A stretch of 64,000 nucleotides of DNA from Heterotrichella gracilis (lineage: Eukaryota; Sar; Xanthophyceae; Tribonematales; Xanthonemataceae), in contig JAULBX010022186.1 in assembly GCA_032358255.1 (NCBI GenBank), positions 308,555 to 372,554 of the forward strand. The letters are read 5' to 3'. Below the pieces are notes generated by a model. That model was given only the letters and a program-made list of their open reading frames with translations. It did not search any database and was not told the origin of the DNA. Shown piece by piece: positions 14,543 to 19,627 of the stretch. The first letter of the stretch is position 1. Each line of letters begins with the position of its first letter. Both the position numbers and the translations under genes were made by a program.

Positions 14543-14604
14543 TGCGTTGACTTATTTAAAAAAACGCTTATCTTAAATATGCAGATAAGGATGAAAAAAC
14601 TACC

Positions 14605-14631
14605 CCAATCTTGCAAAATTTACCAGATTGG
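14605..14631. repeat. Seven-base inverted repeat before the cassette array
   Basis: CCAATCT (14605-14611) and AGATTGG (14625-14631) are perfect inverted copies around a 13-base loop, 27 bases before the first cassette core. There is no T run after it, so it is a weak terminator at best. It could be part of an attI-like site, but there is no support for that beyond position. Confidence 0.35.
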
Positions 14632-14681
14632 AGCCATAAAGTCACCCCTATAAGGAAGTTATGTGCAACCAACCGACAAAC

Positions 14682-15113
14682 ATGAAAATCTTTCAGACAA
14701 TCATAATTTCGTTATTACTCGGTTTGACATCATGCAAATCAGACTCCAATTCTACAGACTGCGGTGAATTCTGGCATTCAGAATTCAAACCGGAAAAATT
14801 CGGACACGACGCTGCTATTTGGGATGAATATTTTCAAACAATACAAGTCGACAATAAGTTTTGTATTCATCTTATAAAGTATTTACCTTTTGACGATGAG
14901 TCTTATTATGTTGGCAGCGCTTTTGTAAAAAATGACACAATGCATTTCGACGTTCAAGAAAAATTGACTTTCTCATTTAAGAAGACACGAGAAATGACTT
15001 ACGGACTGAAGTTGTGCAATTTGTATTTCACATCAAAAAGCATCCCCAAAGTTATTTGCTGGGGTAACAATCCAAAGACAAAAAAAGGACCGAGTTTCCT
15101 TGACGTTGACTAA
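14682..15113 (+). CDS. Cassette 1: small lipoprotein, unknown function
   Basis: A 143-residue protein with a lipoprotein signal (MKIFQTIIISLLLGLTSCKS, lipobox LTSC). The rest is a compact polar domain with several aromatics (FWHSEFKPEKFGHDAAIWDE) and no recognisable motif. The frame opens 21 bases earlier at 14661, but that ATG belongs to the cassette core and would put seven polar residues before the signal peptide. The stop codon is 18 bases before the R''-like site. It is transcribed away from the upstream chromosomal gene with no clear promoter of its own, as is usual for cassettes. Confidence 0.7.
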   Translation: MKIFQTIIISLLLGLTSCKSDSNSTDCGEFWHSEFKPEKFGHDAAIWDEYFQTIQVDNKFCIHLIKYLPFDDESYYVGSAFVKNDTMHFDVQEKLTFSFKKTREMTYGLKLCNLYFTSKSIPKVICWGNNPKTKKGPSFLDVD

Positions 15114-15131
15114 ACTGTGTGCGGTTGAGCA

Positions 15132-15323
15132 GCACATAACAGCAAGCAATTGCGCAATGCGGCATTTCGGCGCATCGCAAAGCAAAGTTTTTGCCTGGCC
15201 GACGCCAGATTCTTTTTTTCATTTTGCTTTGCTAATAAACATTTGTACATTTAATAAACGTTTCGGCGGGCAGACAGATGAAGTTTTATAACCCGCACTG
15301 CGCAAGCTTGCCAAACGTTACCA
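15132..15323 (+). repeat. attC-like site 1 (class A)
   Basis: It begins with GCACATAAC, the complement of cassette 1's core, and ends CCAAACGTTA at cassette 2. Outer arms pair over about 20 bases: GCAAGCAATTGCGCAATGCG against CGCACTGCGCAAGCTTGC, with bulges. An inner pair, GCAAAGCAAA with TTTTGCTTTGC, continues the hairpin. At about 190 bases it is longer than typical attC sites. The right arm is closely similar to that of site 3 (shared AACGTTTCGGC and GCTTGCCAAACGTTA). Confidence 0.7.
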
Positions 15324-15366
15324 CGCATAGGGCGGACAGACATTCGGCAATGACGACTTCAGACAA

Positions 15367-15855
15367 ATGAAAGAAATTACTTTTCATAAAGACGAATATC
15401 TTCGCAAAGAAAATGCGGACGCCGACATCATTTGTATTGAGCCTCTTAATGGTCTCACCGACATTATCGCGACGAGTGTTGTGACTTTAACAGGCAGACA
15501 ATGGGAAATAAAAATTCGGTTTGACTGGAAAGACGATACGCAAATTAACGAATCAGACTTTCTCTATATACCCGAGACAAATGTAATTTTCTTTAAGGCG
15601 CTTAATCAATGGGGCGTTATAGACATTACAACAAAGACCTTAAAGCGACACGAAAACTCTTGTTGGTCTCCTTATATTGAAATAAATGAATCATACATTT
15701 ATATCCAAGACGATTTAGTTGCAGAGACCACAAAACTTAACGGTGACAAAATTCATTCGGTGCCAATAGACCCGCCGACTGAATCAAAAGACTTCGAGGA
15801 CAGAATTGAATTTAATAGCCCAATTATGGGACATCAAGTCTTGCGAAAAAAATAA
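15367..15855 (+). CDS. Cassette 2: soluble protein, unknown function
   Basis: A 162-residue protein without signal peptide or membrane segment. It begins MKEITFHKDEYLRKENADAD and is rich in acidic residues and beta-prone stretches (WEIKIRFDWKDDTQ, NVIFFKALNQWGVIDI, YIEINESYIYIQDDLV), which suggests a small beta-propeller or sandwich-like domain. I recognise no family. The gene starts 50 bases after the cassette core at 15317, and its stop lies about 50 bases before the R''-like site at 15906. Codon use looks GAC-richer than the flanking chromosome, as in the other cassettes. Confidence 0.6.
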   Translation: MKEITFHKDEYLRKENADADIICIEPLNGLTDIIATSVVTLTGRQWEIKIRFDWKDDTQINESDFLYIPETNVIFFKALNQWGVIDITTKTLKRHENSCWSPYIEINESYIYIQDDLVAETTKLNGDKIHSVPIDPPTESKDFEDRIEFNSPIMGHQVLRKK

Positions 15856-15905
15856 CACGACACGGCGGACACGTAAGCTAAGTTTAATCTGTGTGCGCCC
15901 TACGA

Positions 15906-16003
15906 CGTGGTAACAGCACCTACTTGCAATTTTTTGCGTGTTACTGCTCAAATGCATAACTTGGACTTAGCAAAAAACTGCCAGTAGCTGCAGAACGTTA
16001 GCA
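15906..16003 (+). repeat. attC-like site 2 (class B)
   Basis: It begins CGTGGTAAC, the complement of cassette 2's start; the wider match CGCCCTAnG-ACGTGGTAAC pairs with GTTACCACGCATAGGGCG at 15317. It ends GCAGAACGTTA at cassette 3. The arms CAGCACCTACTTGCAATTTTTTGC and the segment 15971-15994 pair at 19 of 24 positions, giving one long hairpin of about 95 bases, a normal attC size. The centre (GTTACTGCTCAAATG and TAACTTGGACTT) recurs in site 4. Confidence 0.75.
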
Positions 16004-16018
16004 CCAATTACCGCAGAC

Positions 16019-16417
16019 ATGAGAACTATTAAAAAAATATTCATTTTATTTGCAATTTCCGGTTTGACAAATTGTGACACTCCAGAGGATGGGGACATAA
16101 AAGTATTTAACGAAACAAATCAAATTTTAAGAATAACATATAATATTGGGCCTTCTAATGCTGTTGACACCATCACTAAAGACATTCAGCCTAGTGACAA
16201 CCTTCTCGTTAATTCGTTTGGCGGTTTTGGTAACAAAAAGACTTTTGAATGTTGCCCTAATAGAACTCAAATATTTTATATAAAATCCACTTTTGGTATT
16301 ATTAAAAAAGACCACAATAACTGTGACAATTGGACAATTCCAAATAAAAGGAAACTTAGAAGGTTTGGGAAAGAAAAAGTTAAATGTGAATTTTACGTAA
16401 CTCAGGCAGACCTGTAA
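16019..16417 (+). CDS. Cassette 3: small lipoprotein, unknown function
   Basis: A 132-residue protein with a lipoprotein signal (MRTIKKIFILFAISGLTNCD, lipobox LTNC). The mature part starts acidic (TPEDGDIKVFNETNQ) and has a short beta-rich domain with a CCPN motif and a second cysteine pair near the C-terminus (NNCDNW, KVKCEF), so disulfides are possible. No family recognised. It is the second lipoprotein in four cassettes. The gene starts 22 bases after its cassette core; the stop is 38 bases before the R''-like site. Confidence 0.65.
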   Translation: MRTIKKIFILFAISGLTNCDTPEDGDIKVFNETNQILRITYNIGPSNAVDTITKDIQPSDNLLVNSFGGFGNKKTFECCPNRTQIFYIKSTFGIIKKDHNNCDNWTIPNKRKLRRFGKEKVKCEFYVTQADL

Positions 16418-16454
16418 GTAGACACCAACTTGAAAAACTGTGTGGCGGTAACTC

Positions 16455-16633
16455 GGTGCTAACAGCAAGCAAGCGCAAGCGGGCAGACGAATAAGGCTTT
16501 TGCAAAGTCAAGGTCGCTTCGCGGACAGAGATTTTCATTTTGCAAAAGGCTAAGAAACATGTATCTTTAAATTAACGTTTCGGCAGACAATGTTTCATAA
16601 ACCCGCCTCGCGCCTGCTTGCCAAACGTTATGG
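16455..16633 (+). repeat. attC-like site 3 (class A)
   Basis: It begins GGTGCTAAC, the complement of cassette 3's GTTAGCACC; the wider flank GGCGGTAACTCGGTGCTAAC pairs with GTTAGCACCAATTACCGC. It ends GCTTGCCAAACGTTA at cassette 4. Outer arms AGCAAGCAAGCGCAAGCGGG and CCCGCCTCGCGCCTGCTTGCC pair well, and an inner palindrome AGGCTTTTGCAAA with TTTTGCAAAAGGCT extends the hairpin. The right arm is homologous to that of site 1. Length is about 178 bases. Confidence 0.7.
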
Positions 16634-16655
16634 GCAAGCTTAGACAAGGACACCA

Positions 16656-17480
16656 ATGGAAACGACGACTAAACAAATAGTAGAAGGCAGTCCTGCAATT
16701 CAATCCACCACAATTGTCTACTCTGACAATTTCATTTTGACAGTTGGCGGAGTATTAAATATTTATAATGACCTAAACGAAAAAGACTGTAAATCCATTC
16801 TCTCGACAAATAAACTCAGACAAATACAGTTTGCTAAATCCTTCTATGTTTCGGACAACACATTTGACTTAATTAATCATCACCTGTTGACCGCTGACAA
16901 AAACCCCAGTTTAAGATTCACATTAAATGGTTATGACGCAGTAAATGACTTAGCCTGTTTGAGTAAATTATCCAATGTTAAATCACTGACAGTTGATATG
17001 TTTAAAAACAATCAGCTCGACAAAATAAATCAATTTACTAGACTGAAAAAGTTAGGACTTGGTGGGAGCATTTCGATAAAACCAATTACTGAACAGAAAG
17101 AGTTAGAAGAACTTTTTCTTTTTGAAAAACTCAAAGACATTGAGGTTATTAGCTCAATGACAAATCTGAAAAAAATTACGTTCTCAAAAATGACTTTGAA
17201 AAACCTTGACTTCCTTACTAATCTTACGAATTTGAAGGAATTGCATTTTATGTTAGGCGGCGCGACAAATTACGACAAGCTTCCTGACATCGGTAAAATT
17301 GAAAAATTATCTTTTACATGGGTTCGAAAGTTGACAGTTGAGCATCTACTACCGATTAACAAAATGAAATTCTTAAAAGAGCTAACGTTCGACACTCAAG
17401 CTCATTTAACTGATCTCGACTGGCTGACAAACAAAACCATTAAGACCGAAGTAATTAATTGCAAAACCTACAGACAATAA
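16656..17480 (+). CDS. Cassette 4: leucine-rich-repeat-like protein
   Basis: The 274-residue protein has no signal peptide or membrane segment. From about residue 95 it has short leucine-rich repeats of roughly 20-22 residues: LSKLSNVKSLTVDMF, FTRLKKLGLGGSI, QKELEELFLFEKL, MTNLKKITFSKM, LTNLTNLKELHFML, IGKIEKLSFTWV. The first 90 residues look like a separate cap. LRR proteins bind other proteins; the partner is unknown. The chromosomal 880-residue protein at 30662-33304 also carries LRRs, but of the longer SDS22-like type. The gene starts 29 bases after its cassette core. Confidence 0.7.
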   Translation: METTTKQIVEGSPAIQSTTIVYSDNFILTVGGVLNIYNDLNEKDCKSILSTNKLRQIQFAKSFYVSDNTFDLINHHLLTADKNPSLRFTLNGYDAVNDLACLSKLSNVKSLTVDMFKNNQLDKINQFTRLKKLGLGGSISIKPITEQKELEELFLFEKLKDIEVISSMTNLKKITFSKMTLKNLDFLTNLTNLKELHFMLGGATNYDKLPDIGKIEKLSFTWVRKLTVEHLLPINKMKFLKELTFDTQAHLTDLDWLTNKTIKTEVINCKTYRQ

Positions 17481-17484
17481 GCCA

Positions 17485-17556
17485 GCCCATAGCAGTGGTC
17501 TTGCGACCATTTTTTGTGTGTTAACGCTCAAATGTGTAACTTGGACTTGGCAAAAA
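17485..17556 (+). repeat. attC-like site 4 (class B), right end missing
   Basis: It begins GCCCATAGC, one change from the complement of cassette 4's GTTATGGGC. The middle (ATTTTTTG-GTGTTA-GCTCAAATG-TAACTTGGACTT-GCAAAAAA) matches site 2 closely. After GGCAAAAAAT the similarity stops and no AACGTTA follows, so the site is cut. A small perfect hairpin TGGTC-TTGC-GACCA at about 17496-17509 replaces the left outer arm. Confidence 0.65.
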
Positions 17557-17606
17557 ATAAGGATTTCTGTCTAGTGAATGATATGCTCAGAATTGGAAAT
17601 TAAAAA

Positions 17607-18920
17607 ATGAAAACATATTTGTATATAATAGGACTTTTTTTCTACCTATTTCACTTTGAAGGTATTGCACAGCAAAGAAAAATTGATTCGTTGACAAATT
17701 TACTTAAATCAAGCGCTAACGAAGACACAAATAAAGTTCAAGTGTTATACAAATTATGCTTTTTACTTAAAGAAAGCAATACTAAGGAAGCCTTAAATTA
17801 TGGAAATAAAGCGCTAGCGTTAGCGGAGAGTCTTAATTATAAAAAAGGTATTGGATCGTCGTATAATAATTTAGGATCATTATATGATGCTATTGGAAAA
17901 AGAAAAGAAGCTATAGATTATTTTTTTAAGGCGTTTGAGATAAAAAAAGAATTAAATGACATAAGAGGACTCTCAACTACTTTAAATAATTTAGGCGTTA
18001 TTTATAAACGTGATCAAGACTATAAAAAAGCATTAGAATATTACCATCTTTCGAGAAGCTATTCTCAAAAAACAAATAACACTGAACAACTTATAAATGT
18101 TAATCAAAATTTCGGCATGCTGTTTGCTGAAATGCATAATGCGGATTCGGCCATTTATTATTTAAATCTAGCGAAGATTCTATCAAAAAATAATCCAAAA
18201 ACACTAGTCGAAGTTTATTCGTCATTATCGAACATCTATAGCAACTCGAAGTACCCGGAAAAATCAATACTTTATGCAGATACGGGTTTAGTAATTTTGA
18301 ATAAATTAGAAATAGGCAAATCTTTTAACTTTTTTTCATTGCACAAAGCAACCGCATACGAAAATATGGGGCTTTTGGATTCCGCATCCAAGTATTATGA
18401 AGATTATAAAAATATACTTAAAGATACTTCTGACTATGAAAAGATCCAACAACTATATTATAGACTAGCAAATTTTAACTATAAGTTATTTAAGTCAAAT
18501 AAAGATGTTGAAGCCCTTGAAAAGGCATTTCTCTATAATAAAATTTCGTTTAGAAATAGGAATCTGGCCTTTAACATTCAAAAATCTAAACTTCTAAGTA
18601 ATATTAAACGGCAGATCGAGGTTCAAGGCTTAGAAAGCGAAGTAGAAAACGCGAAAAAAGAACAGGAAATTTCCAATTTAAAATCAACTAAACAACAATT
18701 AATTATATACACTATAGCCGCCATACTGGTGCTATTGGTAATTTTTTCAATGTTATTATATAAGCGATTTAAGATAACTGAAAAACAAAAACAAACTATA
18801 GACGAGAAAAACAAAAGCATCACTGATAGTTTAAGATATGCTAAACGCATTCAAACATCTCTTCTTCCTACGGAAAAATACATTGAAAGAGTTTTAAATA
18901 GTAAAGATAAAAACACTTAG
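17607..18920 (+). CDS. TPR membrane protein ending at a SpoIIE-phosphatase-type linker (second copy)
   Basis: The 437-residue protein has a signal peptide (ends GIAQQ), about four or five TPR units (YNNLGSLYDAIGK, LNNLGVIYKRDQD, NQNFGMLFAEMHN), one membrane helix (IIYTIAAILVLLVIFSMLL, about residue 368) and a cytoplasmic coiled coil. It ends with SLRYAKRIQTSLLPTEKYIER plus nine residues, the same endpoint as the protein at 8769-10367, just before where a SpoIIE/PP2C phosphatase normally begins. The next gene is convergent 60 bases away, so no phosphatase frame is present. It lies directly beyond the broken end of the cassette array. Confidence 0.8.
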   Translation: MKTYLYIIGLFFYLFHFEGIAQQRKIDSLTNLLKSSANEDTNKVQVLYKLCFLLKESNTKEALNYGNKALALAESLNYKKGIGSSYNNLGSLYDAIGKRKEAIDYFFKAFEIKKELNDIRGLSTTLNNLGVIYKRDQDYKKALEYYHLSRSYSQKTNNTEQLINVNQNFGMLFAEMHNADSAIYYLNLAKILSKNNPKTLVEVYSSLSNIYSNSKYPEKSILYADTGLVILNKLEIGKSFNFFSLHKATAYENMGLLDSASKYYEDYKNILKDTSDYEKIQQLYYRLANFNYKLFKSNKDVEALEKAFLYNKISFRNRNLAFNIQKSKLLSNIKRQIEVQGLESEVENAKKEQEISNLKSTKQQLIIYTIAAILVLLVIFSMLLYKRFKITEKQKQTIDEKNKSITDSLRYAKRIQTSLLPTEKYIERVLNSKDKNT

Positions 18921-18979: not shown

Positions 18980-19627
18980 TTAAGAAACTATTCTCTTCAA
19001 CGTTCTGAAAATAATTTTAAGATCAGTACCCAAACTCATTTGCGAAATGTATTTTTTATTGAGCTCTAACTTTGCGGGCATAATTTCTTTAATATAGGTT
19101 TCTTCGGGGTTGGCAGATTTAGCCAATAAGTCGTTCTCGCTAAAATATTCTAAGGATGCAAGATCGGTAATACCGGGTTTTACTAGTAGTACTTTTTTTT
19201 GTTCAGCATTATATAGATCAACATATTTGCGTACTTCGGGGCGCGGACCAACCAAACTCATATCGCCTATAAACACATTTAAGAGCTGTGGTAATTCGTC
19301 TAGTTTGTATTTACGTAAATAGTAACCAACGGTTGTAATGCGTGAATCGCGGCCACCAACCGTTAACAGTCCACCTTTCTCAGCATTTTTTTTCATGGTG
19401 CGAAATTTAAAGAGACCAAAATCTTCGTTGCCCCGCCCCACTCTTTGCTGAATATAAAAGATGGGGAAGCCGCTTGTAAGGGCAATTAAAAAAGCAATTA
19501 AAAAGAAAAAAGGAAATAAAACGATCATTCCGATAAAGGAACAAAAAACATCAAATATGCGTTTTGGTTTTGATTGTATCATAGCTTCAATAGCAAATCC
19601 TGCGGCCTCTGCTACTATTTCTTCCAT
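18980..19627 (-). CDS. Short-form sugar-1-phosphate transferase (polyprenyl-phosphate acceptor)
   Basis: A 215-residue bacterial sugar transferase with one N-terminal membrane segment ([20 protein letters not shown]) and the catalytic signatures [33 protein letters not shown] and [10 protein letters not shown]. It moves a sugar phosphate onto undecaprenyl phosphate to start a glycan. It is the small PglC-like version, without the large N-terminal membrane domain. The ATG shares its first base with the stop of the aminotransferase (TAATG), so the two are coupled. Sugar identity is not shown. Confidence 0.9.

What the first reader, a model, noticed from the sequence alone, without database searches (positions are those of the whole stretch)
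14658..17556. Integron-like cassette array in a Bacteroidota genome, with no integrase in the window
Four same-strand, one-gene units each begin with a GTTRnnnnC core and each is closed by the reverse complement of its own start (14658/15132, 15317/15906, 15997/16455, 16627/17485). For units 1-3 the complementarity extends to about 18 bases with a small bulge (for example GTTAGCACCAATTACCGC against GCGGTAACTCGGTGCTAAC). Then follow long imperfect hairpins, ending AACGTTA at the next unit. In integrons the R' and R'' half-sites of one cassette pair in exactly this way, because a cassette's start and end were joined in its circular form. Established knowledge: such arrays without intI are called CALINs. 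Inference: cassettes were captured by an integrase elsewhere in the genome or a related cell.
Basis: partly seen in the sequence, partly recalled or inferred. Interest (0 to 1): 0.88.

Follow-up and report, generated by a model that had tools for sequence, protein, structure and literature searches.

The report
Bacteroidota integron array, distant integrase
The four genes sit in a gene-collecting array of the integron kind, whose likely enzyme, a recombinase without the domain that normally defines integron enzymes, lies elsewhere on the same stretch of chromosome.

Summary
The four units are cassettes behind their own attI. That attI is identical over 61 bp to one just 3' of a tyrosine recombinase gene about 228 kb away on the same contig, where nine similar cassettes follow; a third copy, with a cassette, lies on another contig. 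A close relative has an attI-like site at the same chromosomal place with two different cassettes. So this looks like a satellite array served in trans, not a plain CALIN. The recombinase lacks the insertion that defines IntI and has an extra N-terminal domain. Relatives in Bacteroidota have the same layout: integrase, promoter-like sequence, attI, cassettes. Cassette start and end pair over 15 bp with a nearly fixed T·G wobble that favours the bottom strand. A small tree puts the enzyme beside IntI, with long-branch warnings. I read it as an integron-type system without the IntI-specific domain; nine searches of a partial paper library showed no description of it. Recombination, single-strand folding and service in trans are inferred.

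The parts
14602..14662 (+). satellite attI, 61 bp identical to the attI beside the integrase; crossover point at G|TT of 14658-14660
   Evidence: three copies in the assembly; alignment of the copies; upstream of 14602 the sequence has diverged
14661..15113 (+). cassette 1 gene (150-aa frame; an inner ATG at 14682 begins a lipoprotein-like signal and is the likelier start)
   Evidence: no Pfam or NCBIfam match
15122..15334 (+). attC of cassette 1, from its R'' side to the R' side at the start of cassette 2
15367..15855 (+). cassette 2 gene (162 aa)
   Evidence: no Pfam or NCBIfam match
15896..16014 (+). attC of cassette 2, to the start of cassette 3 (short type)
16019..16417 (+). cassette 3 gene (132 aa)
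   Evidence: no Pfam or NCBIfam match
16445..16639 (+). attC of cassette 3, to the start of cassette 4 (long type)
16656..17480 (+). cassette 4 gene (274 aa, leucine-rich-repeat-like)
   Evidence: LRR matches only, below the Pfam cut-offs
17485..17562 (+). attC of cassette 4, truncated: the 3' arm and the following GTT are missing

Best explanation
The window holds a satellite array of an integron-type cassette system. One tyrosine recombinase (C222:94018-95136) most likely makes the cassette junctions: it joins a circular cassette, recognised at its attC as a hairpin of the bottom strand, to an attI. The same enzyme would serve the attI beside its own gene and at least two satellite attI, one of them in the window. 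Shown by sequence: integrase, promoter-like sequence, attI, cassettes, attC, own-start/own-end pairing, computed strand asymmetry, and different cassettes at the same chromosomal attI in a close relative. Inferred: enzymatic recombination, folding of single strands in the cell, service in trans, and a DNA-structure-binding role of the N-terminal domain.
For: Same attI at the integrase and in front of the window array, 100% over 61 bp. Own-start/own-end pairing far above re-dealt partners. Bottom strand more stable in 41 of 42 modelled circular attC. attI core motif after the integrase stop in 70 of 78 loci against 50 of 1560 control windows. Promoter-like pattern across the stop in 55 of 80 loci against 26 of 1600. 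Different cassettes at the orthologous site in G002, with homology ending at the attI. Only one enzyme of this family found in the assembly. Catalytic residues kept in 106 of 106 relatives.
Against: No experiment. 35 of the 83 sequences scanned gave no cassette under the filter (13 of the 80 loci have under 300 bases after the integrase). 8 of 78 loci lack the attI motif and 25 of 80 the promoter pattern; both patterns were written after reading loci. The last window attC is truncated and the upstream half of the window attI has diverged, so the array may be decaying. G002's site differs from its own integrase's attI, which fits service in trans less well there. The inner attC part alone shows no clear strand bias (24 of 42).
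Confidence: 0.85

Rival explanations
1. Plain CALIN: cassettes left by or dropped in by a canonical IntI from elsewhere, without attI or a local enzyme of its own.
For: No tyrosine recombinase match inside the window (one search lists none there); arrays without intI are common elsewhere (passages of PMC9668308).
Against: The attI copy at its start, the matching integrase on the same contig and the same attC types in both arrays; no IntI over the TIGR02249 cut-off in the assembly.
Confidence: 0.05
2. The same cassette system, but recombining ordinary double-stranded sites, as Xer and XerA enzymes do, with the hairpins playing no part.
For: The enzyme's best family and best solved relatives are XerA; it lacks the domain by which IntI reads folded attC.
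Against: Long imperfect hairpins, 15-bp R pairing with a T.G wobble on the bottom strand in 122 of 149 in-register cassettes, and bottom-strand stability in 41 of 42 have no role in a double-strand reaction.
Confidence: 0.15
3. The window array is a relic: attI and cassettes are inherited and reshaped by homologous recombination, and the integrase no longer acts there.
For: Truncated last attC; diverged upstream half of the attI; a satellite attI in F. luteum stands next to an integrase remnant; G001 has neither attI nor cassettes there.
Against: 61 bp of attI without a change; different cassettes than in a relative whose neighbouring gene product is 100% identical.
Confidence: 0.2
4. Chance inverted repeats or another repeat family between unrelated genes.
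For: AACGTTA and strict 9-base pairs are not significant alone.
Against: Re-dealing tests, the same layout beside relatives of the integrase, and the longest reading frame on the + strand in 131, on the - strand in 6, absent in 12 of 149 cassettes.
Confidence: 0.01

Closest known systems
Integrons with IntI (class 1 and chromosomal integrons)
   Same: Tyrosine recombinase, attI next to it, tandem one-gene cassettes, attC with G|TT core and R'/R'' from the same cassette, bottom-strand hairpin favoured, promoter-like sequence facing the cassettes
   Different: No IntI-specific insertion (20 residues against 62 in IntI4); extra N-terminal domain; attI 3' of the integrase gene and cassettes in the same direction as the gene (an arrangement I recall for a few integrons); R pairing of 15 bp with a fixed wobble (7, often 9-11 nt in canonical cassettes, passages of PMC2727003); mostly no extrahelical base in the L arm; several attI per genome
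CALIN (clusters of attC without a nearby integrase)
   Same: attC-flanked cassettes with no integrase beside them
   Different: Begins at an attI copy identical to that of an integrase on the same contig
XerA / NF040815 recombinases
   Same: Best family match (220.9 bits, cut-off 220) and closest solved structures
   Different: Stands beside an attI and cassettes; has an N-terminal extension; groups with IntI rather than XerA in a small tree
Homology-free gene uptake reported in Riemerella anatipestifer (PMC13148043, section 11 read)
   Same: A Bacteroidota species; a 27-bp 5' piece and a 140-bp attC-like 3' piece always move with the gene
   Different: No recombinase was named there, and I did not test whether that species has this integrase

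Membership tests
Integron (IntI-based) | Integrase with the IntI-specific additional domain (patch III / I2) | tested here: not met
   TIGR02249 matched in two pieces, 210 bits against a cut-off of 265; 20 residues where IntI4 has 62; 20 in 105 and 19 in 1 of 106 relatives
Integron (IntI-based) | Tyrosine recombinase catalytic residues | tested here: met
   R231, K256, H321, R324, H347, Y356 in 106 of 106 relatives and in the 24 rows that include the own integrase
Integron (IntI-based) | attI next to the integrase gene | tested here: met
   motif in 70 of 78 loci against 50 of 1560 controls
Integron (IntI-based) | Tandem cassettes, mostly one gene, same direction, attC at the end | tested here: met
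   149 cassettes in 48 of 83 sequences; + 131, - 6, none 12
Integron (IntI-based) | R'' and R' of one cassette complementary, with the join at G|TT | tested here: met
   (sequence level; the join point itself is inferred from where homology and pairing end)
Integron (IntI-based) | attC folds better on the bottom strand | tested here: met
   41 of 42 modelled circular sites, median 4.35 kcal/mol; computed only
Integron (IntI-based) | Extrahelical base(s) in the L arm, on the R''-L'' side | tested here: not met
   In 86 alignments 47 have no net extra base, 15 have one or more on the R''-L'' side, 24 on the other; L arm in register at positions 7-10 in 71-80 of 84
Integron (IntI-based) | Cassette promoter facing the array | tested here: inconclusive
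   Pattern across the integrase stop in 55 of 80 loci against 26 of 1600 windows; consensus recalled; not tested for the window's satellite attI; no expression data
Integron (IntI-based) | Gain and loss of single cassettes | tested here: met
   Different cassettes in G002 at the same place; one comparison only
Integron (IntI-based) | Integrase recombines attC x attI | not testable with these tools
   Needs an experiment
CALIN | attC cluster without a neighbouring integrase | tested here: met
   No PF00589 match in the window; but an attI copy is present, so the name leaves out the main feature
NF040815 (XerA / integron integrase) | Score over the curated cut-off | tested here: met
   220.9 against 220 bits
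HARP / XPB damage-recognition fold (N-terminal domain) | Sequence or fold match | tested here: inconclusive

The most novel reading that the evidence does not exclude
Bacteroidota carry a large integron class of their own, whose integrases are the sister group of IntI and never had the I2/IntI-specific domain. They read bottom-strand attC hairpins through oriented wobble pairs at fixed places, perhaps with an N-terminal DNA-structure-binding domain, and one integrase feeds several attI landing pads around the chromosome. Capture of folded single-strand cassettes would then be older than, or independent of, the domain thought to have made it possible.
Probability: 0.4. Interest if true: 0.93.

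Novelty: new variant of a known kind. Interest (0 to 1): 0.85.

Why it matters
Surveys define integrons by an integrase with the IntI domain. [quoted passage not shown] others list Bacteroidota among the phyla with integrons (passages of PMC8618304 and PMC9668308). If my reading is right, part of the scarcity comes from the definition: 95 of 395 genomes drawn across the phylum match this integrase at E 1e-60 or better, and in 34 of the 395 (my count of the listing) the match begins at residue 30 or earlier (arrays were not checked in these). It would also give a natural case of cassette recombination without I2, an intermediate that PMC7790495 says is lacking (passages), and candidate machinery for the homology-free uptake left open in PMC13148043.

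Tried and rejected
Rfam on the window: no match at the gathering scores. Counts of AACGTTA and of strict 9-base pairs: not significant. Pfam and NCBIfam on the four window cassette proteins: nothing except leucine-rich-repeat-like matches in unit 4. Search of solved structures by sequence with the N-terminal domain: two chance-level rows, no HARP. Fold search with the whole integrase: the 50 rows shown are tyrosine recombinases and say nothing about the N-terminal part. The window's cassette proteins were sought in the fetched loci and found only in the window's own place. IntegronFinder's attC model was not available, and I built no covariance model. A canonical integron was not run through the same cassette statistics, so the contrast with canonical attC rests on PMC2727003. 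The tree uses 22 of these enzymes and 13 IntI chosen by hand plus IntI4, five Xer rows or fewer, and is flagged for long branches; XerA is not one group in it. The relatives are 106 of the 120 best hits to the full-length enzyme, so their N-terminal extension is partly a result of that choice; in the phylum survey many matches begin near residue 100.

Papers: nine searches of the held library, which has no preprints and few subscription papers; eight on integrons in Bacteroidota, Flavobacterium and related terms, one on HARP. The listings showed no description of these arrays; titles and abstract starts are all I saw of most. Passages seen: PMC9024848 (and its section 3.1 whole), PMC8618304, PMC2426708, PMC7725336, PMC9371921 (reference list only), PMC2727003, PMC9668308, PMC7790495, PMC13148043 (and its section 11 whole).
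Full report
WHAT IS THERE. The window is G000:C222:308555-372554, the last 64 kb of a 372,554-bp contig. G000 has 68.5 Mb in 903 contigs, so it is probably a mixed or eukaryote assembly (inference), and I cannot name the organism. Motif counts alone are not significant.

THE INTEGRASE AND THREE attI. A recombinase of 374 aa from its first ATG of the family's length (frame of 388) lies at C222:94018-95136, minus strand. Directly after its stop comes a region of about 100 bp ending AAGTTA, then nine cassettes. A 105-bp query from that region finds three places in the assembly: itself; C1:574801-574904 (98%); and C222:323156-323216 = window 14602-14662 (100% over 61 bp), immediately in front of unit 1. 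The window array thus begins at an attI copy about 228 kb from the integrase. No other member of the family was found: the next match is a 34% identical 305-aa Xer-like protein (only the best candidates are scored). attC-like sites also occur on contigs C68, C111, C43, C518 and C435, not looked into.

OWN START, OWN END. In 16 cassettes of this species and its relative G002, own starts and ends agree at 139 of 144 core positions; re-dealt partners reach at most 122 in 100,000 trials. In the 80 best related loci (of at least 578) plus the three own arrays, 149 non-overlapping cassettes were found in 48 of 83 sequences with only a 9/9 core and an inner hairpin as filter. Positions not used in the filter: 10 matches in 84 of 149; 11 in 4 of 149, but is A in the start facing C in the end in 122; 12-15 match in 123-132; 16-18 in 29-30. 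Start position 11 is A in 148 of 149. Re-dealing within loci gives at most 295 for positions 12-15 against 428 of 448 observed. 118 are in register, 23 have one extra base on the end side, 8 fit neither. Many loci are Flavobacterium and some cassettes repeat, so the counts are not independent.

STRAND MARKS. A facing C on the top strand is T facing G, a wobble, on the bottom. Folding of 42 circular-form sites makes the bottom strand more stable in 41, median 4.35 kcal/mol; the inner part alone is 24 of 42. In 86 inner parts, 1 unpaired base follows AAC in 57 and 5 precede GTT in 59; 47 have no net extra base in the arms, 15 an extra one on the R''-L'' side and 24 on the other. In 84 distinct ones the L arm stays in register for about 20 bp; position 15 carries the same mark as R position 11 in 59 of 84, position 6 the opposite one in 41 of 84; over positions 2-20 wobbles favour the bottom strand 150 to 65. 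Canonical attC use extrahelical bases, with R pairing of 7 and often 9-11 nucleotides (passages of PMC2727003).

PROMOTER-LIKE SEQUENCE AND attI IN RELATIVES. TTTG-N17-23-TAnnTTT[GAC] spans the integrase stop in 55 of 80 loci (45 with TAnnTTTG) against 26 of 1600 windows for the looser form; in 50 the first box begins 15 nt before the end of the stop codon, in the codons of the conserved C-terminal FD. That this is the Bacteroidota promoter consensus is recalled. The attI core motif follows in 70 of 78 loci against 50 of 1560 windows. Both patterns were written after reading loci.

CHANGE BETWEEN RELATIVES. Genome G002 (MAG-331) has a 100% identical flanking protein. At the same place it has an attI-like site whose right half differs, two other cassettes with attC of the same kind, and then the same chromosome; homology to the window ends at 14662 and resumes at 18984. 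G001 (UBA2475, flank 93%) has an unrelated gene and no attI there. More attI-like places occur in G002 and G005 but not in G001 or G004 (one search adds one in G002 and none in three others). F. luteum (G006) has a second place on C39, next to a 47-residue integrase remnant with a stop. Satellites may therefore be what is left of integrase loci, still in use or not.

WHAT THE ENZYME IS. NF040815 (XerA / integron integrase) 220.9 bits, cut-off 220; TIGR02249 210 bits, cut-off 265, in two pieces. IntI4 has 62 residues where this family has 20. The catalytic residues are kept in 106 of 106 relatives. Integron integrases are said to have gained single-strand recombination through I2 (abstract and passages of PMC7790495). 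In a 40-row tree 22 of these enzymes form one group (100/99), 14 IntI another (100/98), and the two together stand apart from XerA and XerC/D (97/85), with long-branch warnings and a root for drawing only.

SPREAD. 95 of 395 genomes of the phylum match at E 1e-60 or better. Two Chryseobacterium plasmids carry the integrase and attI; one of them has convincing cassettes and an annotated group II intron protein further on. PMC13148043 (section 11) reports gene uptake without homology in a Bacteroidota species, always with 27 bp before and 140 bp after the gene, the latter folding like attC; the mechanism was left open. I did not look for this integrase there.

VERDICT. An integron-type system without the IntI-specific domain; the window holds one of its satellite arrays. 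As an IntI integron it fails the defining domain; that it works like an integron is well supported by anatomy and comparison, not yet by experiment.

Noticed in passing
L033 (G002) integrase P0002 against the C222 integrase: Mosaic: 0.88-0.93 identity in residues 1-160, mostly 0.57-0.78 after that (0.90 in one block), and the attI next to it differs too, as if the C-terminal part and attI had been swapped together.
   Followed up: partly
L032 and L035, just after the integrase: A gene of another kind stands where attI is expected; L032 has cassettes further on.
   Followed up: no
window 17607-18920: A TPR-type gene stands between the truncated last attC and the conserved chromosome; G002 lacks it there.
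   Followed up: partly
G000 contigs C68, C111, C43, C518, C435: Single attC-like matches on other contigs, perhaps further arrays of this or other bacteria in the assembly.
   Followed up: no
L140 14738-16054 (plasmid NZ_CP041688.1): Annotated group II intron reverse transcriptase downstream of a plasmid-borne integrase and cassettes of this kind.
   Followed up: no
G006:C39:61686-61937 (F. luteum): Satellite attI with a short integrase 3' remnant holding a stop.
   Followed up: partly
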